Assembly: GCA_035578905.1 (NCBI GenBank)
Contig: JAQJVL010000057.1
Coordinates: 2,046,001 to 2,110,000, forward strand
Direction of reading: 5' to 3'
From: Stictocephala bisonia
Taxonomy: Eukaryota; Arthropoda; Insecta; Hemiptera; Membracidae
Length of the DNA: 64,000 bases
This document shows positions 1,918 through 41,429 of this stretch, piece after piece. Under the pieces are notes generated by a model. The model ran no database searches. It was not told the DNA's origin and was given only the letters and a program-made list of their open reading frames with translations. The stretch's first letter is position 1, and each line of letters starts with the position of its first letter. Position numbers and translations under genes: made by a program.

Positions 1918-2302
1918 AAAGCATAGAAATAGGTTAGGTTAAAGGGCACTAGGCCAGGAATTAGTATATTAGAGAGATAGGACATCAGCAAACTTACCTT
2001 AAAAGACAAGTTCACTAACATCAGAGTAGTAGTCACAAACACAAAATACACAAAAGCTCACAAATTTTCAACACCACTGGCATTTTCTTCAGGTGAGTAG
2101 AGGGAGAGAGAGAGAGACACTCAGTGTCTCTCTCTCTCTCCCTCTACTCACCTGAAGAAAATGCCAGTGGTGTTGAAAATTTGTGAGCTTTTGTGTATTT
2201 TGTGTTTGTGACTACTACTCTGATGTTAGTGAACTTGTCTTTTAAGGTAAGTTTGCTGATGTCCTATCTCTCTAATATACTAAAAAAAAAAGCATAGAAA
2301 TA
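1918..2302 (+). mobile_element. poly(A)-ended insertion made of a perfect palindrome, with 14-bp target duplication
   Basis: AAAGCATAGAAATA occurs at 1918-1931 and again at 2289-2302. Between the copies lie about 29 bases (1932-1960), a perfect palindrome (arms 1961-2121 and 2123-2283 around the single base 2122), and an A run (2282-2290) at the right end. The target duplication plus A tail is the hallmark of LINE-driven retroposition. The palindrome centre is a (GA)n/(TC)n tract. The arms hold donor-like CAGGTGAGT (left arm) and AAGGTAAGT (right arm). The parent sequence was not recognised and no long reading frame is present. Confidence 0.75.
1961..2283. repeat. perfect inverted repeat, 161-bp arms, 1-nt spacer
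   Basis: I compared the two arms base by base and found no mismatch. The first non-pairing position is 1960/2284. A transcript of either strand would fold into an uninterrupted hairpin of about 160 bp. Confidence 0.93.
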
Positions 2303-3180: not shown

Positions 3181-4396
3181 TTACATTATTTATTACGGTC
3201 AATCAGAAAGGTCGTTTTCATTTTTTATTTTAACTAAAACCTCTTACTCCTAAAATAAACACAACCTCTATATTGGCTTTGCAAAGCCTGCTCTGAAAAT
3301 CGGCACTTTAATTTGCTTATAAATAAAATTATAATCAATAAATCTATAAACAAATGAATCAAAAATAACTTTAAATGCGCTATTTATTAAGTAATAACTA
3401 TCACAATAATCAATAAAGACAACTAAAGTAAAAATAAAAAAGTCAACAATTACATAAAATAGTTCACTTTTTAAATTTCACTAGAGTAAAATTGAAAAAC
3501 AATAACAAGGTTAAGTCAGGTTATAAACAACAACATAAATAACATGCTTTTATTTGCTATTTTTTTTATTTTCCATGTGGTGCACAATGACTCAGCGGCT
3601 CCCCCCCCCTCCTTTGAACGACAGTTAGTCTAATGCACATCGTCTAGCCAAGTGCCACGGTAAGCCTAGTGAGTTATACCAGCCCTATTTAAAATGTGAT
3701 CCAGTTATATTTTATAGTAAACTAAACTAGAAGAACTTATATTCCTATATATTGATTGAATTCTAGTTTGGTCCTTGCCTAAAAAAAATAGTGTTTTGTT
3801 GTTGCAATGCCAGGAAACTATAGTTTTGTCTTATAAAATTATTGCTTTTATAGATTATTTGTTTCTTATTTTATAACTGTGAGCTAAGCCTTTCCATCCA
3901 AACAGGAAATTGTTTCTTAATATGAACAAAATTTGTACGTTTTTGTCTTTATGGATCTTGCACATATTTTTGTAAAACTATAATTTTAGTTTTACGAAAA
4001 AATTAAAATTATTATATTTAATTTTATTCTTTACAACATTTTAAAAATTTCATGTATTATGGAATCTTTATGGAACATTTTCTTATCACGGTGGTAAAAC
4101 TTAATAAAATTATCATTTCGACAGTTGTTTTTTGTTGTTGCTACTTTTACCACGAGCTTTCTTATATAAATCCAGCTAACTTAAGTCTTTTTGCACTTTA
4201 GAATAATAGGCAAAATTTAATTGAGAACATTTTCATGTGTAGTATGTTATAAATTTCATGTGTTTGTATATATTTTTTATGTTTATTACAAAATGTCTGT
4301 GAGATACTGAAAAGGGGCAGCACTAAAAACTTTATTGTCAAGCACTTTAAGGGTTTACAGTATTAACTATTAGATATCAATTGACAATTTGTTGCA
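3181..4396. other. AT-rich sequence upstream of cby
   Basis: No coding exon was found. The end of this stretch (GTTGCAG, AG at 4396-4397) looks like a splice acceptor, so a 5' UTR exon of cby may lie further upstream; that exon cannot be placed by eye. Confidence 0.4.
3640..3682 (-). repeat. diverged inverted piece of the 2.6-3.1 kb repeat
   Basis: AGCCAAGTGCCACGGTAAGC near 3652 is the near reverse complement of part of the repeat unit. This suggests that the tandem block and this piece belong to one inverted-repeat element spanning about 2.5-3.7 kb. Confidence 0.5.
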
Positions 4397-10600: not shown

Positions 10601-12658
10601 ATATTTTACATCTTCCCTATTAACCTGACACATGCATTTTTAAATTTTATTAAAAGTTTTAATAATTTGTATCCTAGTTAGAACAAAAAAGTACTGGTAT
10701 TTGAACTAATTCTCATTTTTCAAAAAAATTACACCACTATTACTCAAAAACTTCAAAATGTAGTATATTTATATTTAATTACGTGGTTGGTAGGAATGTT
10801 TTCTATAAGTTTTATAAATTTTAGAATTTTATCTTTTCAAGAAAAAACTTCTTAATTATTCCCTGAAACATTGATTTCTTGGCTTTTATAGGTAAAAATA
10901 TTAATTTCTTGGTCTTGTTATAACCTAACAATATTATCCTTATGATACATATTGTTAGGTTACGATACATTATTATTATATGCATAAGTAAATGAAGTGA
11001 TTTTATTTTGATTTAAATCTATTTTAAATTGATTTAATTTGATTTTAAATCACTGCATATGAAAGTAATGTATTATAACTATACAAGTCATAAAGACTAC
11101 ATAAAGACCAAGTAATTAATTTTACAACCTCTAGAAGCCTAGAAAACAATGGTTCAGGGAATTGATAAGAACTTTTTTCTGAAAAGTTAAAACTGTGAAA
11201 CTTATAAAACATTCCTATCAACTACGTATTAAAATATAAATGCAATACATTAACGTGATTTTTGGAAATAATGCTGTAAATTTTATGTACAGTGAAAACT
11301 AGTTCAAATCCCGGTACTTTTTTGTTCCAACTAGTATAAAAATGATTTAAACTTATTATAAAATTTAAAAATTCATTTGTCATGATGCAAACTTAAACAA
11401 GGAAAACAATGGTGTGATTGGAGTTTTCATAGGACAGTTAATTTTTTAGTAAGCAGTCTTCAAACTCAGTTGTACAAAATTTCTGCTCCAAGAGTAGGAG
11501 GGTTGTTTCCCTCTGTGAAAAACCTGTGAAAAACGCCAAAAACATAGGTCTTTTGCAACAATTTGTTTATAACAATAATCCTACAATAACACTTTATAAG
11601 TGTTATTTAAAATGTCAAGGCCTATTCTAGTGAACTATAAGTTATTTTTTGTAAAAACGTAAAAAAAATTTTCAATGCTTTTTTCACGGTTAAATATATG
11701 AAACTTTAAATGACATTCTTGATGATTTTATATTAAAAGTTTCAAATCAACTTATGGTCCTCTAAAATGGGCCTTCAATAATCATAATATGTTCACTATA
11801 ACTCATAATAATAATAAACACAAACCATGCAATTGAAATAGAAAAGCATATTTTGGCCAGCTGAAGGTAAAGTTGCATTGCTACCATAGAGCTGTATTGG
11901 CCTGTCAACCTTCCAGCATTGCCTTGCCGGTTTGAGAAACAGTCACCTTAGGATCATTGTTTCAGTTTATTCTAAACGTGATTGTTTTCCTTGTCCATTT
12001 TCCAACACAGTATTTTTATAAAACATTGTAAACTTGGTAAATTTCAATTAAATTTTACATTAAAATCAACACCAAAAATTCTTCATATGACAATAACTGA
12101 GATATTTAAAGAAATTGTTTTTAGGTTCGCTATAAATAACCTAGTATTAACAAATAAAATTTATCCACCAAAATAATTTACCTAACATAATCATAACTTA
12201 AAAACCTAACCCAACTGTTTTGTTAAATATCTCAGTTACTTTTTGTCATAGGTAGATTGGAGGAAAAACAACATAATATTAACAAGGTAATATAAAAAGA
12301 TTTTTTTATTTTCTTTAAAAAATTGTTATTTTTGCGGAAAAAATTCTTCAGATTTATGTTTGCGAGGTTAATATTGACTAGTTGATATAAAAATTGTAAA
12401 AATCGGGTAGAACCCTATATTCTATATTTACCAATATTTTTACTTATTCTTGGCCAAGAAAGATAAATAAAATGATATATTACAATCAGCTGTTTTTTGA
12501 GTGTATTAAATATTAAAATTTTATTCTATTTCAAACAGAAGAAACATAATGTTTTTATCTGTTCTCAGTTGACGGAGACTACTGCTGAGGCACATCTTCA
12601 AGACAAAGAAATTTCAAGGCTACGTCAAGAACTTTCCAGAATATCAACCTCAGCATAA
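4451..12658 (+). CDS. cby: Chibby, beta-catenin antagonist / ciliary base protein (3 coding exons)
   Basis: Joining 4451-4631, 7751-7866 and 12569-12658 gives 387 nt and a 128-aa protein, the usual length of animal Chibby (human about 126 aa). It opens with MPLF followed by SPKK and a basic stretch, the family N terminus, and has the conserved FADGEWIP block (residues about 53-60). A leucine heptad coiled coil from about 70 to 120 (QRLRQQVQRLEMENN, then LQLKTEILLDM) matches the dimerisation region. Chibby binds the C terminus of beta-catenin and blocks TCF-dependent transcription; in many animals it also acts at the ciliary transition zone/basal body, which in insects is the main known role. 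The start is the first in-frame ATG after a likely acceptor at 4397. Introns are 3119 and 4702 bp, in phases 1 and 0, and carry several transposons. Confidence 0.93.
4828..5264. mobile_element. non-autonomous DNA element with G-run interior, in cby intron 1
   Basis: The ends GGGGCCTAAATTAGGTAACA (left) and, reversed, AGACCCTAAATTACGTAATG (right) form an imperfect inverted repeat. Inside lie several runs of 5-17 G (for example near 4897-4913) and no reading frame. The target duplication is unclear, so the superfamily is not assigned. Confidence 0.5.
5562..5960. mobile_element. fold-back element copy A, right end missing, in cby intron 1
   Basis: Begins after TA with GTTGGAACAAAAAAGTACTG. The inner arms around GGCTTCTAGAGGTTGTAAAA (near 5645) and its reverse complement (near 5870) pair with each other. 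The outer right arm fades near 5960. It is related to the complete copy at 10677-11331. Confidence 0.65.
5961..7287. other. cby intron 1 sequence, nothing recognised
   Basis: AT-rich with scattered short repeats; no exon or clear element end. Confidence 0.4.
7288..7575 (+). repeat. SINE (head type 2 plus shared tail) in cby intron 1
   Basis: The head resembles the inverted copies at 48.4-49.2 kb and the copy at 56372. The tail carries GGCTATTGGGCTATTAATAA (7437-7456) and the CATCCACACTCATCC segment, which recur in four other repeats of this window. The A-rich end is decayed. Confidence 0.6.
7751..7866 (+). CDS. cby: cby coding exon 2
   Basis: The acceptor is TTGACAG/AA at 7750/7751 and the donor GATATG/gtaaaa at 7866/7867. 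It encodes residues 61-99, including the start of the coiled coil. The 116 nt plus the carried base restore phase 0. Confidence 0.9.
7867..8661. other. cby intron 2 sequence, nothing recognised
   Basis: A 79-codon frame (7999-8238) has no recognisable domain and no donor/acceptor context that fits cby. Confidence 0.4.
8662..9520 (-). mobile_element. internally deleted mariner-type transposon in cby intron 2
   Basis: Terminal inverted repeats TAGTCAAAAAGTTCCC (left) and, reversed, CAGTCAAAAAGTTCCC (right) are flanked by TA at 8660-8661 and 9521-9522, as expected for the IS630-Tc1-mariner superfamily. At 859 bp it is shorter than the usual roughly 1.3 kb. Transposase remnants run on the - strand. 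Confidence 0.85.
8915..9380 (-). pseudogene. mariner transposase remnant
   Basis: Read on the - strand, the N-terminal helix-turn-helix segment (IKFCFKTSSGTLEIS..., ending FYERHKRFH) is followed by SRSGRPTT, the usual linker. After a deletion come the catalytic blocks LLHDNTPAH and LEHPPYSLDLIPADF in shifted frames with stop codons. The order and motifs are those of mariner (D,D34D) transposases. The middle of the gene is lost and it cannot encode an enzyme. Confidence 0.8.
9521..10674. other. cby intron 2 sequence, nothing recognised
   Basis: A short direct repeat (TACAGCTG followed by GAGTT, near 9826 and 9850) is the only structure noted. Confidence 0.4.
10677..11331. mobile_element. fold-back MITE copy B, complete, in cby intron 2
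   Basis: TA at 10675-10676 and 11332-11333 flanks a 655-bp element whose two halves are imperfect reverse complements over nearly 330 bp each. The ends are GTTAGAACAAAAAAGTAC and, reversed, GTTGGAACAAAAAAGTAC. The TA duplication suggests a Tc1/mariner-type MITE. It has no coding sequence. Confidence 0.75.
11334..12568. other. cby intron 2 sequence, nothing recognised
   Basis: AT-rich with no clear repeat ends or exon-like frame. Confidence 0.4.
12569..12658 (+). CDS. cby: cby coding exon 3
   Basis: The acceptor is TTCTCAG/TTG at 12568/12569. It encodes the last 29 residues (LTETTAEAHL... to STSA) and a TAA at 12656-12658. The sequence resembles the ESTAESHL-type C-terminal half of other Chibby proteins. 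Confidence 0.9.
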   Translation: MTETTAEAHLQDKEISRLRQELSRISTSA

Positions 12659-17238: not shown

Positions 17239-18613
17239 TACCTTACCTACCTTACCTCCTTGGCCATTGAAACCCCAGTTGGTTTTTGGCCTCGCCAACA
17301 ATGCCTCTCCATTCTGCTCTGTTCTTTGCTGCCTCAGGTGTAGTCCCCAATTTGTAAATATCTTTGAGGACCTGATCTCTCCATCTAAGTCTTGGCCTGC
17401 CAAGGGGTCTTCTGCCGTCTGGGTTCGATCGTTCAATATAATTAATAATGGAGGTATTTTCTCGCCTCCACACATGTCCAGCCCACCTTAGTCTTCTACT
17501 TTTCACTAATGCTACTATATCTGGGTGAGTGTATAATTCTCTTAATTCTCTGTTCTTTCTTATTCTCCAAACATCTCCTTCGCATACTGGACCAAACACT
17601 TTTCTTAATACTCTATTTTCAAATACAATAAGCTTCTTCTCATATTCCTTTGTCAGTGTCCATGTTTCAGCTCCATATAGTAACACAGGGAGGACTAGTG
17701 TATGGTAGATTTTGATCTTAGTTTTCCTAGACAATATTTTGGATTTAAGTAATTTCTCTACTGCCCAGTAGGTCCTAGAGGCTAAGACTAGTCTATTTTG
17801 AATTTCGTTTTCCTCTTTTATGTTTTGTGCTAGCTTTATGCCAAGGTATTTAAACTCTTCGACTTTTTCGAATTCCCACTTGTCCACTTTAATATTTTGT
17901 ATTCTATTCATTCTCTGTCTTCTGGTTATATGCATATATTTTGTCTTATCCTGGTTTATTTCTAATCCCACCTTTCTGGTTTCTTGAATGAGCACTTTTG
18001 CTAAATTTTCCAGATCTGTTCTACTTTCAGCAAGAAGAGCAACGTCATCCGCAAAAGCTAATACATTTACTTTTGATCCAACATAGATCCCAGCTCTTAA
18101 ATCTTTTGTCTTCCTGAGTGCATCTTCTAAGACTAGGTTAAAGAGTAGAGGGGATATCCCATCACCTTGACGAACTCCTGTATTAACTTCAAAGTCCTCT
18201 GTATATTCTCCATTTACCTTCACTTTACATCTTGATTTATCTATACATATTTGTGTCAATTTTATAAGCTTATCTGGGATGCCAAACATTTGCATTTTTT
18301 CATACATTTTCATCCTATTTATGCTGTCATACGCTTTTTGAAAATCTATAAATAATAGGTGAACATCCTTATTAAACTCCCAATATTTTGAGAGAGATTG
18401 TTTTATGGCAAATATTTGGTCTATAGTAGAGCGACCTTGAACAAATCCTGCTTGGTGGTCTTTAATATTTTCTTCTATATACTCTTTCAGTCTATTTAAG
18501 AGGATTTTTGATAGTACTTTATATGCTGAACTTAGAAGAGAAATACCTCTATAATTTTTGCATAATAATTTATTTCTGAAATAGTACAGGTTAATGTAGT
18601 AAACATATTTCAT
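17239..18613 (-). mobile_element. RTE-clade LINE, 5'-truncated, inserted in the outer LINE
   Basis: The 3' end is a short GGTAA/GGTAG tandem tail (about 17239-17258, read on - strand), typical of RTE elements, which end in simple repeats rather than poly(A). The 5' end at about 18613 falls within the RT domain. Confidence 0.8.
17252..18613 (-). pseudogene. RTE-type reverse transcriptase, open but 5'-truncated
   Basis: Uninterrupted over 453 codons. Motifs in order: NYRGISLLSSAYKVLSKIL at the truncation edge, AGFVQGRSTIDQIF, the motif A region LLFIDFQKAYDSI, GVRQGDGISPLLFNLVLED (motif B), and catalytic FADDVALLAES. These are followed by LGLEINQDKTK-type thumb sequence and the C-terminal RRLRWAGHVWRR and GRPRLRWRDQV blocks common in RTE-type elements. 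The endonuclease is absent. The clean frame suggests a younger insertion than its host LINE. Confidence 0.88.
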
Positions 18614-29975: not shown

Positions 29976-32900
29976 GTCAGTATTTCTCCAAACTATATTA
30001 CATGCTTTTCTCAGTCATACAATTATTTTTTATCTATAATCCAATAGCGTAGCAAGGAAGACATTCAACAACAGAAGAAAGAACTTCAATGTCCGTTGAG
30101 TGTAATTCATGAAAAGATGTTGCAGCAGATGCAACTTCAGTGGCACTTTGACAAGAATTGTCAAACAAGTGGCAGAGGTTTGACGAGATTGAAAATCTTT
30201 TTAGAAATGCATTGTAAGTATCAATTCTCTTGTTTAACTCAGACAGAAGCTTGTTAATTATTAGTGTATAGCTTTCTTTGAATTTGTCATCCACGTTTTC
30301 TTCCGTAGTCTCTTTTTCTTCTTCAGAATCAGAAGAATCTCCACCCCCTCCTACTCATGATCCGACGCCAGCGTCCAGCCTGACGAAATAAGCCAGTCAT
30401 GCCCAACTCGCCTTGTGTACATCGACAGCTGCCCTTATACTCAGTGATGTACTACGCAGAATAATAGTGAAGTCTGATATAAAATATCTAATGTATTAAA
30501 AAACTTATCTTTGAACTTTTTATAGTTTTAATTAGTGTATAAATCTGAGTGAAAACAAAAATGTTGCATAAAACTGTCCTTCAAAATTTACCGCTCTGGG
30601 CCCGGGCCCATGTGCCCCATGCTTGAATTCAGCCCTGATGGTGATATATGGCTCAATATCTTGATGAGTTCAGACACAGTTGCATGTATAGCCTTTGTAC
30701 AATGAGGCTTGTTTTATTATCTGAGAGAGATACCTTTCCAGCAATGAAGGAAAATGCCAGTGACATTTAGTATTGTGTTTTATCATTGACTATAGAATCA
30801 AAAAGACAGAATAAAAAAAAAATCAATGCATTTGCTGTTGATGTGTACCTGTGCTGCTATCTAATGTTGAATGCATTAAAATAAGAACTTAGACGACAGT
30901 TTTGTGTACTATTAGCTCAGCTGTTATTTACTTCAGCATGTACTGAAGAGAGAAAGAGGAAGGATATTACACCTCTGAAGATATTACAAGGACTTCAATA
31001 GTTTCTTAGGAAGAGAAAACCACCTTCACAGGATTCATATGAGCCAACAGTCTACCTGTTCTTATTTATAGTTAATGGTTTTACTTTTTTACATGTTTTG
31101 TATTTCATGAACTTGTCTGCTCATTTACGTTAGGTGATAAGGAATAAGCTAACTCACTAAGATATGTACATGTTTTACATACAAAATGATATAGGTCTAT
31201 TATATAATTCTTAGGAAGAGTAATTGTTATGTTGCCCATCATATGTTTTTAATTTAGAGATTTTACCAAATTATTTATCAAGCTATGTTTGCTTTCTTAG
31301 GTATGAGAATGATAAAGCAGCTCAAGTAGCGATTCATAAACTGCATCAGTTAGATGTTTTGGGTGAAAGAATATCAGCTGAACTTGCAAGAGGCTCAGGT
31401 CCGGACACCGAGGATTCTGTTGATGCCAGGTTTGTATGAATGTGCTGGTATAATGTATATAATTATTGTCTATAAAATCAGCAATGCCCTTGTCAAAGCA
31501 ATCACTAATTTAAAATTGTTGTGATAACAATGATACATATTTTAATATTTTTAGTTGATTTGGTTAGTACATAATGTGTTTTCATCTTGAGTGAAAATTG
31601 TATCTTAGATTAAATCTGAAAATGATTTATGTATTATGTTAGACCCATTTTGATAGTATTTTGTTTTTATTTGAAATAAAACCCATTGAGTTATCGGTAA
31701 TTACAACTTAGTATTATCAGTTCTCAGTATTTCAGTTAAGTACACGTTAATTGATTAGGAAACAGGAAGTATTTTATATATAACATAACAAATTGTGCCA
31801 CAGTTCAAATTTCAATTTAAAATTCAAAATATTTATTACCTTCAGAATAAGTTTATATAAATTGTTTGTAGGAAAATAACCATAACTAAACTTAAAATTA
31901 AATAAACAAATTATTACTTTCTACTACCATAGCTAAAACATAATAAAAGAAACACTTTGAAAAAATAAGCTTACTTGTGCCTTCAATACCGGAGAAACTC
32001 AAGATTGCTCGAGGAGTTTGTCCCTTTGTCCCTTAACATCTTTAAGATCTTAAAGATGTCAACTTATCTTAAAGATCTTGATCTTTAAGATAAGTTGAAA
32101 AAGTCACTACCATTAAAATTTAAATTGTATTTAATACTCTTTGTTTACAGAGTTCTGAACATAACAGATGAGAAACAAGATAAAATATTAAAAGCAAGAG
32201 AAATATTTTTAAAGAAACTAGGACTTTCATTAAAAAATTTTGACTTTAATCAGCCACCTCCTTTAAACATTTATTACCAGTATCCTCCACCTACAAAAGC
32301 TGTGTTAACAAATATCTGTAAAGCGATGGCAAATGTACCCAAGTTATATACTCAAGTCTTACATCTTATGAACAAAATGAACCTTCCTTGTCCTTTCACT
32401 GATAATTACCCTCTGGACTCAGACTTATTTCAAGAAAAGAAATTTAATATTACAATTGATGAGGGAAACAGTATCATGGAAGAGGATAATGAAGATAGGT
32501 CCATGTCAGAAAACGAGTCCGAAATAGGTAGTGATTCTGAACACCGCCCTGGAGAAATAATCCCGATGAAAAGAAAAAGGAAAGAAAGAAAAGTGATTAA
32601 ACGACCAAGATTTGTGAAACCGCAAGCTCATACTGTTCAAAGCAGCAAAGTAGGTTTAAAGCCAAATGATGTTTTTGAAAGTGCACCGAGAGAGCATGTT
32701 CAAAAAAAGATAGAACTTAAAATCACTGCAGACTTAAGTTCTATACAAAATGCCCAAGAAACTCAGTACAAAGAGAGTCTTGGAGGATTTGATGTCATTA
32801 AAACTCCTCTTAAAATACAAGAAAAAATAATTGATCCTGAAGATAATCCTGAATGTAGCTTGGAAGAACAAAGTCCTACTTGTATTACTTCAGAACAATT

Positions 32901-35900
32901 AGCTGCAAACAGAATTTCAGCAAAAGGTAAGAAAAGTATTCATATAAATTATTTAAATGTAGCCAAACATTTTATGATGTACTTATAATCAATGTCTTGT
33001 TATTATCATTTTTATTTTCAGTGTATAGTAATTTTTGAGATCCAATACAGTTCAAAAAGTGAATTTAGCCTATAGAACAGTTTTAAGAAACAATTTATAT
33101 TATATTTGTTGCATTCTCTTATATACATATATAAGAGAATGCAACAAATATAAAAACTTGTATACAAGGTAGGCAGAAGTCTGGAATATATTTATTAATT
33201 TTGAAACCATTGAAAAAAAATTAAAAAACTGTAGTTATGTACATGTCCCTATACCAAACATTTAGACATATTTTATTCATTTTTCTTATAGCCAGGGGAT
33301 GGCCCATGAAGTAAGCCTTAGAAATTTTAAATGTAAGCCTACTTTGAGTTATATCTCATTTTAAAGGTGTTTTGTACAGTACTGAAGTGTAAACCTGAGG
33401 TCAAAAGGATGACCCAGTCAGAAAATAAAGCTACTCAAAGAATGTAATGTCATATAACTAATTCTTCTTAGTTATACAGCTATTTATTTATCACTATTGT
33501 TTAGTATGTTGTTAGTTGTTAACAATCATAACGTAAGAATGAGTTATAAAAATAACTATGTTATTTAACAAAAATAAAAATGAGAAAATAACTAAAACCC
33601 TTTTGACTGTACACTAAAAATAGTTTAAGAAAATTATTATAATAATTTGTTATAATTTTTTGTTAAAATGAATTAATTTATCATATTCTGTCTTTTCAAT
33701 TATAGCTGTATACAGTAATAGATAATAACTATCTTATCCTTGTTCTTTAGCAATATTAGTTTTATGACATTAAATTCATTGAGAGGCTATATTTTCTGAC
33801 TGAGTCATCCTTTTGACCTCAGATTTGCACTTTTGTTTATGTTATACATACAAAGACCTGTAAAATGAGATATGCGAAAATCAAGTAAAATATGTTTAAA
33901 TGTTTGGAATTGGGACATGCACATAACTACAAAGTTTTATTAGATTTCTTTCAATAGTTTTAAAAATAACAAATATACAAGGGAATACCTCTGCACACAT
34001 TGCATACCAACCTCGACATTCGCTGCCCTTGTGATACCTCGGCCTCGGCTCGTATTTGACTACAAATATTAGTAGTTAAACTGAATTAAGTAAAATCAAA
34101 TGGAGTAAACAAATTAATTAATAGGTCATATGACTCTGATGATAAATAAAAAAATGAATAAATAATGGTTCCATAAGAATAACATTGAAAGCTTGGAGGC
34201 CAGTGGAGTGGATTCCTGAGGTTGGAGAGAAAAAATAGTTATAAGTTTCAAATTTTGATTTTATGTAGTTTATTTGTCATTCTAATGCCTATTTTATTTC
34301 TTTTGCATTTTAATTCCTACTTGAAAATATCATATTGTGTATAATGAGGTTAACACGTTAAGTGCCATGTCGTTCCCATCGGCACAACAACTGTAGTTTC
34401 AAAGTAGTGACGTGTCGGCCGATCAGAATGACAACTGTACCGATACAAGGTATTTAAAAAAGTACTTCATCATTATTTAGCACTACCTATCGGACAACCT
34501 ATGAACGTTTTTAACAAATCAATATCCAAAGTAAACAGAGAAATGTTGTTCTTTTCACGTAGTTAAGTAATTATTGCTAAGTAACAAGTTTAAATCCACT
34601 ACTTTTTGTCGTTCCAATGGTACGACAGCACAGTTTACGATTCCACTAGTCCGCAGCTAGAGGGAATTATAATAAAAACAACTTTTGATAAGCTATTGTT
34701 CTTACATTTATTTATCAAATTACCAAAAACCTGATTTTAGAATGAACTTAACATTATTGAAAATTGGTATCATTAATTTTAATTTTATTCCTCGAAGCAA
34801 ATTTTGTACTTGAATGTTGTACCAAGCCACTTAGTTTGTTATGTTGTTACTCGTGTTATATTTTTGGCCTTCTTTCTGTTATTTATTGATGCTATACGCA
34901 TGTAGCTTATTTTAAATGTCTCTTATTTTTTCCAACTCCAAACAATTTGTTTGATTCCTTGGAGGTAGTGACGTCCTGTTTGTTTTACTGGAGAAAGTAG
35001 ACTAATCTGGAATCTCCATTAGGTTCATGCAGATGTCTTCCTTGTAATTAGTTATGGACCATCAAAATACAACCTTATGAAGCACAGGAAACCTGTATTA
35101 TTCGTCATAAGCAGAATAAAGAGAATTTCTTAATCGGCCGATCGTCCCAACATGTCATTTTACAATACATTTTTGGTAATGTAGAATTACATGCTGGACC
35201 GATCAGCCGACATTTCAAACACATATATAAATAGAAATTAATGTTAGATATTTGATCTAGTATCTATTTTGTTTGTGCATACCAAAAGTCATACATATAC
35301 GATGACAAATAAAGGTTGGCTCTACAGGGTAAGTTGCTCCGATACTGCCTTGGCACTTAACGTGTTTAGTAGTATAGAGGGCTGTGCAGCCCTACCTTTG
35401 CCTCTTGAATAAGAAATAATTTAATTGAAAAATATTTTTCATTTCAATATTTGTTACTCTTCTTTGAATAATATATTGTTAAGAACACTTTTTTACCAAC
35501 TGTAAGTTTAGATAAAATATAATATCTGATGTAGGTTTCACATTTAAAGCATTTAATATTGGGACAGAAAATTATATCGATATTTTTATAGATCAGAAAG
35601 TTCTACCAGTATTCAAAAATTACCAACCAGGAGCACCATCTTGCCGCCTGTACATTAAGAACTTGGCTAAAAATGTACAGACAAAAGATTTGCACTTCAT
35701 CTACAGGCGTTACTTCAAGCCTGAGTTAGAAGGAGAGCAAGGCACAATGTAAGTTATTAAAATAATTTGTGAGATTTATTGAACTGGAACTGAAACACAT
35801 ATCATACAGTAAAATTTATTCCAGTTTGAAACCTCTTTGTAGCAGGTCGAAATCCCTCAGTGGCAGGCCATGTTTGGCCATCACGCAATTTTTTTTTTTA

Positions 35901-38900: not shown

Positions 38901-41429
38901 CTAAAAGATTCCTCAATAAACTAGAATCATCACAGTTTACTTTATTTCTATCCATTTTACAATAAAAATGATTAAAACTTTGATTTGAAAACACACGCAA
39001 ACTCCGATCGGTACAATGTAAACAAACAAATAGCGCAACTTTGTAAACTAATGAAACATCGATATATCGAAGAGTACATCGAAACATCGATCGAAACAAG
39101 TACTTCAATGCCTTTAGAAGCTGTTCGCATCGTTACTAGCTAGTTAATACAGTAAGATAGTACTATAATAAATTAAATACGGATCGACACGCTCCGTGTC
39201 GACGGCATTTTTAGTACAGAAATGCATCGACACGGAGAGTGTCGTGCGGCACTAAAAGGGTTAAAATGCCATAAGATATCAGCCACAAATACTTCAAATA
39301 TTTGCTCAGTTGATATTTGCCCACTCCAATCCTGACCCACTTTAGCAAATATTTTATATGCTTTTTAATCATTTATAGACCATTCTTATCGTGATTATTA
39401 ATCACTGAATTATGCTGTGTATTCAATAAATGGCGGTACTAAAATATGGCCCTTATTCAAAGCTACAAACACCCACCCATACAATGGATCAAAACCAGTT
39501 TACATGGATGGGTGGGTAGGTGTGTCAATACCACTATATGTGTATGGGGGTACTCGTTGATACTCGTGAGTATAGTAATATATTGATCTTCTCCGTTTGA
39601 ATTCTTCAGACTTGTAGCTTTTTCAACTTTTTATTTCCGTAATGCAATTTGTTTAGTGCTGTACAAAATTGACTCACATTACTGAACAATTAATTAACTC
39701 TGTATATTTCCTCAAAATTGCTGTTGACCTATTAGTACTGAACTGTCAGATGCCAGATTAGTGAGCTTTTAATGTGGATTGCTTCTTTTTTTTAAATAAA
39801 AATTATGTATTTACCTCCTACACCAGATAGATTTCTGTTCCCAAAGAGTAAAACTTTCAAACACTTAGACACCACTTCAAAGTTCTGTTCACTCTTTAAC
39901 TCATTACTGGTGACAGATGTGAAATGTTTTGGAGACTTCTTAAAGGGGATTCTTCAGGCATAATGTCTCTACATTGTACAAGAATTTTTATCAGGGGCCA
40001 ATCAATACCTAGCCCATTTTCAGATTATTAATTTTATTAAAATTGGTTCAATACTTAGAGATTGTAAAACCAAAGTATGTATTCAAAATTGTTGTTATTT
40101 CGTAATGGCACACTATTAAGCAGTGTAATATTGTTTTTTTCATAATATTTAATTTTATTTGAACATCTGAAAAACAGAATAAGTCTACATTATATTGTGA
40201 TATTTGTATACATTTTAAAAAGATAAAACAAATATTTATTCACTGATTCTTGCCTTAAATTATGTTGATTGCAAAATAAATGTTATATGTATTTTTTTTA
40301 TAAAAGTTAAAAATTATCAAATATATTTTAAGTAGGTAATCTTTTATTAAATATAAGTTTAAATATTATATATACAGTACGTATATGGGTGGGCGGGTGG
40401 GTCAGTACCACAGTACGTATATGGGTGGGTCAGTACCACAGTACGTATATGGGTGGGTCAGTACCACAGTACGTGTATGGGTGGGCAGGTGGTTCAGTAC
40501 CATTACCACAGTACGTATACGAGTGGGTGGGTAGGTCGTTACCACAGTACATATATGGGTGGGCACGTAGGTCATTGCCACAGTACGTATATGGGTGGGC
40601 GGGTGGGTCAGTACCACAGTACGTGTATGGGTGAGCGGGTGGGTCAGTACTACAATACGTGTATGGGTGGGTCATTACCACAGTACGTATATGGGTGGGT
40701 CAGTACCACAGTACGTATATGGGTGGGCAGGTGGGTCAGTACCACAGTACGTGTATGGGTGGGCGGGAGGTTTTTTTTTAAAGTATATCACTATATACTT
40801 GCTAAAAAGTGATAATTTGTTAACACATAACGGCTAGTAAAAACTATAACAGTTGTTTAACAACTGCAAATACAAGTTAATGCAATGTTCCAAGTAAAAA
40901 AATAAAGTTGTATCTTTGTTCTTCATATAAAACAAAAGCAACATAAGGTATAAAGAACTCTGTAAACAAGGTGTAATTTGTGTTGTAGTTTCAAAAAAAT
41001 AATAAAAGTATGTTGAAGAATTTGATATTTCCATGTATCTATGAAATGGAATAGCACAAATTTACAGCATTGCATCCAGATCCAATGCACTAAAAGGATT
41101 AATAGCACCTAAGGAACAAATAAATGATAATAATGACGCCTAAACTCATAGACTACTTAGAGCAGCAATTAAAACTAAACTATCTTAATTTAAGGCAATT
41201 TAGTCATATATCATATCTTGTGAAGCATAGAAAGTGAAGTTTTCCTAAAAAGAGTTTGTTATGCAGGTTTGACATCAGACTAATGCAGGAAGGCAGGATG
41301 AAGGGACAGGCATTCATTACTTTGCAGAGTGTGGGACAAGCACAGGCAGCCATCAAGGAAACCAACGGTTACATCCTTAAGGACAAACCCATGGTGGTGC
41401 AGTTTGCCAGATCAGCTGCTGCTAAATAA
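29833..41429 (+). CDS. RNPC3: RNPC3 / U11-U12 65K protein of the minor spliceosome (5 coding exons)
   Basis: Joining 29833-29975, 31301-31429, 32151-32926, 35592-35748 and 41267-41429 gives 1368 nt and 455 aa (human protein about 517 aa). RRM1 (about residues 5-80) has RNP2 VLIRHL and an RNP1 region at NLVYARYEN. A conserved middle segment (about 132-173) carries YPPPTKAVLTNICKAMANVP and the VLHLMNKMNLP block, which is diagnostic. It is followed by an acidic and then a basic linker (MKRKRKERKVIKRPRF). RRM2 (about 368-450) has RNP2 LYIKNLA and RNP1 KGQAFITL. In known orthologues RRM2 binds U12 snRNA and the N-terminal part binds U11-59K, bridging the U11/U12 di-snRNP for U12-type intron recognition in the nucleus. 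All four introns here are U2-type. Confidence 0.95.
30034..30345 (-). pseudogene. hAT-type transposase fragment in RNPC3 intron 1
   Basis: The - strand frame reads FKESYTLIINKLLSELNKRI and NAFLKRFSISSNL, resembling the region after the catalytic centre in ZMYM/52-kDa-repressor-like hAT proteins, preceded by an acidic SEEE-rich run. No element ends were found. Confidence 0.45.
30600..31300. other. RNPC3 intron 1 sequence, nothing certain
   Basis: A palindromic GGGCCCGGGCCC near 30598-30609 is the only distinct structure, perhaps an end of a decayed hAT element. Confidence 0.35.
31301..31429 (+). CDS. RNPC3: RNPC3 coding exon 2
   Basis: The acceptor is TTCTTAG/GTATG at 31300/31301 and the donor GCCAG/gtttgt at 31429/31430. 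It encodes ENDKAAQVAIHKLHQL to about residue 90, the second half of RRM1. Confidence 0.9.
32036..32097. repeat. two adjacent perfect hairpins before RNPC3 exon 3
   Basis: ACATCTTTAAGATCTTAAAGATGT (32036-32059) is given here by halves: ACATCTTTAAGA and its exact complement. Directly next, 18-bp arms 32060-32077 and 32080-32097 flank TT. The acceptor of exon 3 is only 53 bp downstream. Confidence 0.9.
32151..32926 (+). CDS. RNPC3: RNPC3 coding exon 3
   Basis: The acceptor is TTTACAG/AG at 32150/32151 and the donor AAAAG/gtaaga at 32926/32927. It encodes residues about 91-349: the conserved YPPP/VLHLMNKMNLP segment and the acidic-basic linker. Confidence 0.92.
33100..33153. repeat. palindrome, 26-bp arms, 2-nt loop, RNPC3 intron 3
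   Basis: The arms 33100-33125 and 33128-33153 pair without mismatch; the core is TATATACATATATA. Confidence 0.9.
33167..33998. mobile_element. long imperfect inverted-repeat element, RNPC3 intron 3
   Basis: Left arm about 33167-33440 and right arm about 33790-33998 are reverse complements at most positions, including GAGGTCAAAAGGATGA (left, near 33398) and its complement near 33808. The ends resemble CAGAAGT and, reversed, CAGAGGT. It is a MITE or fold-back element; the target duplication is unclear. Confidence 0.65.
34354..35364. mobile_element. piggyBac-like non-autonomous element 4, RNPC3 intron 3
   Basis: Ends CACGTTAAGTGCCATG and, reversed, CACGTTAAGTGCCAAG. Flanked by TTAA (34350-34353) on the left and a mutated TTTA (35365-35368) on the right. 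1011 bp with short CGGCCGATC-type palindromes in the interior. No clear transposase fragment. Confidence 0.8.
35592..35748 (+). CDS. RNPC3: RNPC3 coding exon 4
   Basis: The acceptor is TTTATAG/ATC at 35591/35592 and the donor ACAAT/gtaagt at 35748/35749. It encodes the start of RRM2 with RNP2 LYIKNLA. Confidence 0.92.
36090..36352 (+). repeat. tRNA-derived SINE, RNPC3 intron 4
   Basis: Head with a box A-like GCGTAGTTGGTTC and a box B-like AGTTCGATCCC about 30 nt apart. The tail GGGCTATTAATTAATG and CGCCCATATCTTGACGATCA ends in (AATA)n at 36337-36352. The tail is shared with repeats at 7.4, 41.6, 56.6 and 61.3 kb. Confidence 0.8.
36353..37545. other. RNPC3 intron 4 sequence, nothing recognised
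   Basis: Very AT-rich, no exon-like frame. Confidence 0.4.
37866..38568. mobile_element. hAT-type non-autonomous element nested in piggyBac-like element 5
   Basis: An exact 8-bp duplication CTTATAGT at 37858-37865 and 38569-38576. The ends CAGTGGCGTATTT and, reversed, CAGAGGCGTATTT differ at one base. 703 bp, with GGGGCGGCAAA motifs repeated inside. A second copy of the right end, exactly complementary to the left end, occurs near 38496-38508, about 60 bp inside. Confidence 0.9.
38866..38955 (-). pseudogene. short transposase-like N-terminal remnant in piggyBac-like element 5
   Basis: Reads MDRNKVNCDDSSLLRNLLDD and ends nine residues later; 29 codons, basic start then acidic, placed about 300 bp from the right end as in elements 2 and 6. 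Too short for a family call by itself. Confidence 0.4.
39470..39550 (+). repeat. minisatellite core, degenerate copy (locus 3)
   Basis: CATGGATGGGTGGGTAGGTG followed by TCAATACCACTATATGTGTA shares the core of the arrays at 28.6 and 40.4 kb; an inverted CACCCACCCATAC lies just before it. Confidence 0.75.
40376..40772 (+). repeat. G-rich minisatellite, locus 2, RNPC3 intron 4
   Basis: About fourteen units of 26-40 bp: GTACGTATATGGGTGGG, optional CGGGTGGG, then TCAGTACCACA. Long open frames on both strands here are products of the repeat. The core TACCAC-GTACGT-ATGGGTGGGCGGGTGGG matches locus 1. Confidence 0.95.
41267..41429 (+). CDS. RNPC3: RNPC3 coding exon 5
   Basis: The acceptor is TTATGCAG/G at 41266/41267. 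It encodes the end of RRM2 (FDIRLMQEGRMKGQAFI... to VVQFARSAAAK) and TAA at 41427-41429. Possible poly(A) signal ATTAAA at 41456. Confidence 0.92.

What the first reader, a model, noticed from the sequence alone, without database searches (positions are those of the whole stretch)
1918..2302. Perfect 161-bp-arm palindrome inside a retroposed, poly(A)-ended insertion
The two arms are identical over 161 bp with one spacer base, flanked by a 14-bp direct repeat and ended by an A run. Simple LINE retroposition gives truncations or 5' inversions, not perfect self-complement. The source may be a fold-back RNA, a template switch onto the nascent cDNA strand, or snap-back synthesis. If transcribed, it makes a long dsRNA hairpin, the type of precursor that feeds endogenous siRNA in insects. 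The perfect identity implies recent origin or gene conversion between arms.
Basis: partly seen in the sequence, partly recalled or inferred. Interest (0 to 1): 0.8.

Follow-up and report, generated by a model that had tools for sequence, protein, structure and literature searches.

The report
Two-ended Penelope retroelement insertion
The perfect palindrome is a very short insertion of an abundant Penelope-like retroelement whose two ends were probably copied separately from the element's RNA, one on each side of the broken target DNA, and then joined head to head.

Summary
The palindrome is real: 161-bp identical arms, 1-bp spacer, perfect 14-bp target-site duplication. It is not a LINE/poly(A) retrocopy. 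The arm plus the 29 bp between the left duplication and the left arm form 190 contiguous bases in other places of the same genome, part of a ~3.24-kb Penelope-like element (PLE; RT plus a weak GIY-YIG match, hammerhead-like motif, tandem pLTRs). The arm's outer 29 bases occur 1350 times exactly. The 29 bp match the known PLE "tail". In 18 of 18 simple head-to-head insertions read, one end stops at the tail site and the other ~29 nt inside it. Among 20 pairs taken by position, 16 have exactly one tail, 4 none detected, 0 two. Three tailless arms reach 46-519 nt further than their partners, which a fold-back copy could not do. Of 14 centres with both arms ending at the putative RNA start, 12 carry an unambiguous extra C, as if a cap had been copied; two, the window's included, are ambiguous. 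Best reading: both target strands primed reverse transcription, each at one of two start sites, ran to the RNA 5' end, and were joined. New member of a known kind.

The parts
1918..1931 (+). left copy of 14-bp target-site duplication AAAGCATAGAAATA; its last bases TA also match the element beyond the tail
1932..1960 (-). 29-bp PLE 'tail' (antisense; element reference 3434-3406), i.e. the stretch between the two inferred RT start sites
   Evidence: contiguous with the arm in other copies; tail described in PMC3846280 and PMC11167929
1961..2121 (-). left arm: pLTR, antisense (element reference 3405-3245)
2122..2122 (.). spacer C: either a cap-templated base of the left arm or the reference -1 base (C) of the right arm; cannot be told apart here
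2123..2283 (+). right arm: pLTR, sense (element reference 3245-3405), without tail
2284..2288 (+). five extra A between the 161-type end and the duplication; slippage or untemplated, inferred
   Evidence: MH161 = -5
2289..2302 (+). right copy of the target-site duplication
2147..2187 (+). hammerhead-like motif in right arm: stem I CTCAC/GTGAG, core CTGAAGA...GAAA, stem II
   Evidence: unconstrained fold; no Rfam hit
2057..2097 (-). the same hammerhead-like motif in the left arm
   Evidence: mirror of the above

Best explanation
A minimal insertion of an EN-containing Penelope-like retroelement. The element's protein cut both target strands 14 bp apart. Each exposed 3' end primed reverse transcription inside the element's RNA, one at the tail site (position 190 of the pLTR), the other about 29 nt upstream (position 161). 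Because these sites lie in the 5'-proximal pLTR, both cDNAs soon ran off the capped RNA 5' end, at the A of TCAGTGT. The two short run-off cDNAs were then joined head to head, giving a perfect palindrome with one arm 29 bp longer. Shown: identity with the element, duplication, the two end positions, the arms' common stop. Inferred: RNA start, cap copying, separate priming, order of steps, joining.
For: Arm+tail is contiguous in the ~3.24-kb element. Its ORF has an RT (Pfam RVT_1, E 2.7e-10) and a GIY-YIG match (E 5.9e-4 for the C-terminal 200 aa, 0.0037 for the whole ORF; below Pfam's cut-off). In 18 of 18 simple inverted insertions one outer end is at reference 3430-3442, the other at 3401-3408, with 12-18-bp duplications; these are 18 of the 28 stretches examined (27 regions plus the window). 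In 20 pairs by position: one tail 16, none detected 4, two 0; pooled 37 distinct pairs, chance of no two-tailed pair 5e-7. Arms unequal by 46, 206, 469 and 519 nt in 4 of 18. Of 17 palindromic centres found (exact flanks, spacer up to 12), 14 stop both arms at A+1; in 12 of these an extra, non-reference C lies on at least one cDNA strand (18 of 24 ends, binomial 4e-7); in the other two, single-base spacers, C could also be the reference base. The anole PLE protein cuts and extends both strands and starts internally at two adjacent sites (PMC11167929, parts 1-3 of 4 read).
Against: In 14 of 18 insertions the inner ends agree within 15 nt, 8 of them away from the putative RNA start, which two unlinked cDNAs would not do; a shared (truncated) RNA molecule or fold-back is needed. 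L038 has a nearly perfect palindrome that includes 586 nt per arm of non-element DNA. Some centres contain what look like pieces of the nascent strand (L034, L040; by eye). Not all insertions are two-ended: L047 is a single-orientation copy with tail and 13-bp duplication. TSS and cap are inferred from DNA only. P-values assume independent insertions.
Confidence: 0.75

Rival explanations
1. Same element, but snap-back: one target end primed a cDNA from the tail site to the RNA 5' end; its 3' end then folded back (or RT switched onto the nascent cDNA) and copied it outwards, stopping 29 nt short; the end was joined to the other target strand through microhomology.
For: Inner ends coincide within 15 nt in 14 of 18; L038's long chimeric palindrome; centre fillers resembling local fold-backs; self-priming was proposed for PLEs in PMC3846280 (Discussion read), there on an antisense template.
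Against: The second arm would have to be a copy of the tailed arm, so the tailless arm could never reach further 5'. It does so by 46, 469 and 519 nt in L051, L057, L055 and by 6-13 nt in L040, L053, L056. A fixed stop ~29 nt short also needs an extra reason.
Confidence: 0.2
2. A pre-existing hairpin RNA (transcript of an already inverted pair) was retrotransposed whole.
For: Inverted pairs are common in this genome and could be transcribed.
Against: The 18 insertions read have different duplications, and many different inner positions and fillers. Among 17 centres only two kinds recur: TG, and a single C/G (the window's kind, once more at C2689).
Confidence: 0.03
3. DNA-level inverted duplication, or an assembly artefact, unrelated to reverse transcription.
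For: Perfect palindromes do arise by DNA fold-back and by chimeric library molecules (general knowledge).
Against: An exact duplication flanks the whole insert; the 190/161 asymmetry recurs at independent sites.
Confidence: 0.02

Closest known systems
EN-containing Penelope elements of Adineta vaga (PMC3846280; passages and Discussion read)
   Same: pLTRs, head-to-head inverted pLTR, target-site duplication, 31-bp tail optionally at one inverted pLTR, palindromes at the inverted junction
   Different: The typical structure described there has an ORF bounded by direct pLTRs plus the inverted pLTR; here only the pLTR stretch next to the putative RNA start is present, in two facing copies
Poseidon from Anolis carolinensis (PAc; PMC11167929, parts 1-3 of 4 read)
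   Same: RT plus GIY-YIG, tandem pLTR-ORF units, hammerhead motif with ATG at stem II, two adjacent internal RT start sites bounding the tail, both target strands cut and extended in vitro
   Different: The paper saw no start-site difference between strands in vitro; here each simple inverted insertion uses one site at each end. The start sites lie in the ORF there, upstream of the long ORF here
LINE-1 5' inversion by twin priming (PMC2912911, PMC12016303; passages read)
   Same: Both target strands prime cDNA from element RNA and the two are joined head to head, often with microhomology
   Different: In L1 the inverted cDNA is primed internally, elsewhere on the RNA, and shares sequence with the other cDNA only in part of cases (median 12 bp); here both arms copy the same stretch from start sites ~29 nt apart

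Membership tests
EN-containing Penelope-like elements | single ORF with RT and C-terminal GIY-YIG endonuclease | tested here: met
   964-aa ORF in L031; RVT_1 E 2.7e-10; GIY-YIG E 5.9e-4 on the C-terminal piece, 0.0037 on the whole ORF, both below the gathering score. Homologs: 1054 proteins at E<=0.001, 120 listed, most with RT and some with GIY-YIG domains
EN-containing Penelope-like elements | tandem or partial-tandem units forming pLTRs | tested here: met
   3244-bp units, 1 mismatch between two neighbours, L031
EN-containing Penelope-like elements | inverted pLTR with a 30-40-bp tail at one end | tested here: met
   29-bp tail at one end in 18 of 18 simple insertions; 16 of 20 by position, 4 none detected
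EN-containing Penelope-like elements | hammerhead ribozyme motif in the pLTR | tested here: inconclusive
   core and two stems present, unconstrained fold agrees; no hammerhead match in Rfam at E<=10 in 4 loci; cleavage untested
EN-containing Penelope-like elements | RT clade membership by tree | not tested
   no tree built; family-level homology only
LINE/SINE or processed retrocopy with poly(A) | RNA 3' end followed by a poly(A) tail | tested here: not met
   the element continues past the arm in other copies; only 5 extra A here and no comparable A run at this end in the other 17
L1-type 5' inversion (twin priming) | inverted segment lies upstream of the non-inverted one | tested here: not met
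   both arms cover the same reference stretch

The most novel reading that the evidence does not exclude
The two RT start sites of a PLE are a division of labour: a dimeric RNP loads both target strands on the same RNA, one RT at each site ~29 nt apart, and both run towards the same RNA 5' end, so that insertions are typically born as head-to-head pairs with exactly one tail. The tail would then mark which strand used which site, not be an optional feature. Single-orientation copies such as L047 would be cases in which the second cDNA failed or was lost; because of them I lowered this probability and no longer say 'every insertion'.
Probability: 0.3. Interest if true: 0.65.

Novelty: new member of a known kind. 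Interest (0 to 1): 0.45.

Why it matters
How Penelope-like elements finish integration is open: the 2013 paper proposed self-priming; the 2024 biochemistry found two internal start sites on both strands and equated the tail with the stretch between them, leaving later steps unvalidated. A family with 1350 exact copies of one end motif, many in simple duplication-flanked insertions, lets these models be told apart from genome sequence. Here the one-tail rule and the longer tailless arms favour two separately primed cDNAs, and the extra C suggests run-off to a cap. It also supplies natural perfect hairpins whose small RNAs can be looked for.

Tried and rejected
Rejected: known RNA or tRNA-derived element (Rfam none at gathering score; ARAGORN none); a first-exon/pre-mRNA retrocopy, my first guess, given up when the arm proved to be a PLE end; bilateral copying of two RNAs with different 3' ends (poly(A) versus read-through), replaced by two internal start sites; a TIR transposon (the tail/161 asymmetry and varying inner ends do not fit). 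'Tandem RTs on one RNA' predicts that the tailless arm is never the shorter one: ignoring differences of 7 nt or less, it is longer in 5 (L040, L051, L055, L056, L057) and shorter in 2 (L039 by 13, L052 by 206) of 18, so this is not established. Sharing of variants between arms was weak evidence: L032 has one private shared variant but also unshared ones. Searches that led nowhere: arm pattern in viral contigs and genome contigs (0 matches); PDB with the window's 32089-32985 frame and with the element ORF (none). Dropped before the 18-of-18 count: L031 (tandem only), L033, L035, L036, L037, L045, L048 (inverted joints inside tandem or complex arrays; no duplication of 7 bp or more found by my scan; L035 and L036 share one joint and look like one event), L046 and L047 (single orientation; L047 with a 13-bp duplication, L046 with only a 9-bp A-rich match), L054 (nested). 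In L033, L035 and L036 both facing ends carry the tail, so the one-tail rule is claimed for simple insertions only. Dropped before the count of centres: 3 of 17 in which an arm continues into the reference beyond A+1; 2 of the remaining 14 are ambiguous. Counting those two as well gave 20 of 26 ends, P 4e-8. The 20 position pairs come from the first 100 of 1350 places, the only ones listed, picked by eye; the other 60 places were not paired. The six inner ends called 'at 3245' were set from the centres read; their BLAST coordinates vary from 3238 to 3249.

Full report
Observation. The palindrome is as described: 161-bp arms at 1961-2121 and 2123-2283, spacer C2122, direct repeat AAAGCATAGAAATA at 1918-1931 and 2289-2302. 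Five shuffles of the window gave nothing near it.

What it is. The window lies in a 1.68-Gb genome (contig C57). The arm has at least 47 matches there, 43 of them full-length at 100% (40 of 724 candidates scored), and its outer 29 bases occur 1350 times exactly (backwards control 0). In other copies the arm is followed directly by the reverse complement of the 29-bp segment. So arm plus segment are one 190-base stretch, found in tandem every ~3.24 kb around a 964-aa ORF. The ORF matches RVT_1 (E 2.7e-10) and, below Pfam's cut-off, GIY-YIG (E 5.9e-4 for its C-terminal 200 aa, 0.0037 for the whole). Its best homolog is unnamed (75%); the nearest named ones, 61 and 58% identical, are leafhopper proteins (Macrosteles quadrilineatus), so the host is probably a hemipteran (inference). 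RT plus GIY-YIG in one ORF, in tandem pLTR units, is how EN-containing Penelope-like elements are described (PMC11167929, PMC3846280). The arm also holds a hammerhead-like motif whose expected two stems come out of an unconstrained fold, with an ATG at the start of stem II as reported for the anole element; Rfam does not recognise it.

Anatomy across the family. I read 27 fetched regions (L031-L057) plus the window. Eighteen of these 28 are simple head-to-head insertions, each with an exact 12-18-bp duplication. In all 18 one outer end lies at element reference 3430-3442 (tail present) and the other at 3401-3408 (tail absent). The side varies. Target and element share 0-7 bases at 33 of the 36 junctions; three show gaps instead (1, 5 and 6 bases; the 5 is the window's own A's). 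In a second sample, 20 head-to-head pairs recognised by position among the 100 places that one search listed, comparison with the tail pattern (826 exact places) gives 16 pairs with one tail, 4 with none detected by the exact pattern, 0 with two. One pair (L034) is in both samples. Over 37 distinct pairs the chance of no two-tailed pair is about 5e-7 if tails were dealt at random. The rule does not extend to the inverted joints inside arrays (L033, L035, L036), where both facing ends carry the tail, and single-orientation copies exist too (L047, with a 13-bp duplication).

Inner ends. In 14 of 18 the two arms stop within 15 nt of each other: 6 at or within a few bases of reference 3245 (the window among them), 8 elsewhere. 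In 4 they differ by 46, 206, 469 and 519 nt (tabulated in 104). A fold-back copy of the tailed arm cannot contain more 5' sequence than that arm, yet the tailless arm is the longer one in L051, L055 and L057 (46, 519, 469 nt) and slightly in L040, L053 and L056; the tailed arm is longer in L052 (206) and L039 (13). Hence at least some arms were reverse-transcribed separately. The frequent agreement of inner ends then needs a common RNA 5' end, or fold-back in those cases. For the stop at 3245 a transcription start is likely: the reference reads TTTCAGTGTC, and TCAGT resembles the arthropod initiator (recalled; a locust study whose passages I saw reports pyrimidine-purine starts, PMC8011201). 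Seventeen palindromic centres of this kind were found with exact flanks and spacers up to 12. In 14 both arms stop at that A. Twelve of these have an extra C on at least one cDNA strand where the element has G (18 of 24 ends, P about 4e-7). The other two, the window and C2689, have a single-base spacer that may be such a C or simply the reference base before the start. An extra C is what copying of a cap would leave; human insertions with a reverse-transcribed cap are mentioned in PMC2912911 (passage). For stops elsewhere, truncated or chimeric RNAs (L038, whose 1172-nt middle is 1170/1172 self-complementary) or fold-back remain possible, and some centres seem to contain pieces of the nascent strand.

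Mechanism. The best-supported account is double target-primed reverse transcription: both target strands are cut and each primes at one of two start sites ~29 nt apart. In the window both cDNAs would be run-off products of the 5'-proximal pLTR, joined with one extra base. Shown here: element identity, duplication, the two end positions, common stop, extra C in most centres of this class. Taken from the literature: cutting and extension of both strands and two internal start sites, in vitro, for the anole element. Inferred: RNA start, cap copying, use of one RNA molecule by both strands, joining by end repair.

Standing. Head-to-head pLTRs, one-sided tails and palindromic junctions are known for this class (PMC3846280). 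In the listings of my paper searches and in the parts that I read of the two PLE papers I saw no account of a one-tail-per-insertion rule or of a cap-derived C in PLEs; supplements and most subscription papers were not available, so this is not a claim of priority. The feature itself is a new member of a known kind; the family-wide regularities are what would interest a specialist.

Noticed in passing
L038:2360-3531: 1172-nt middle is 1170/1172 self-complementary non-element DNA mirrored between two PLE arms; suggests a chimeric template RNA copied twice, or fold-back. It contains CTAACCTAACCTAAAA, resembling the tail's end.
   Followed up: partly
window:2247-2252: GTAAGT after AAG (donor-like), and TACTAAT at the 161-type end, whose last A coincides with a branch-point-like A. 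An intron in the pLTR is possible; introns in Penelope are recalled.
   Followed up: no
window:28599-28973 and 40374-40767: Two 36-bp-unit minisatellites about 72% alike over ~300 bp, each open in one frame.
   Followed up: no
window:2563-3179: Partial tandem array (127- and 243-bp units, 98-100% alike) close beside the insertion, with an inverted remnant at 3646-3679.
   Followed up: no
window:5582-5929 and 10626-11382: Two inverted-repeat stretches (70-71% self-complementary) that share sequence with each other; may be old fold-back or MITE-like elements.
   Followed up: no
window:33100-33153: Short perfect palindrome with 26-nt arms and 2-nt spacer; unexplained.
   Followed up: no
window:13978-15411 (-) and 17255-18613 (-): Reverse transcriptase fragments (RVT_1 E 1.9e-23 and 5.3e-44), LINE-like by appearance.
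   Followed up: partly
window:32089-32985: Open frame resembling part of an RNPC3-like spliceosomal protein (recalled resemblance; no Pfam or PDB hit).
   Followed up: partly
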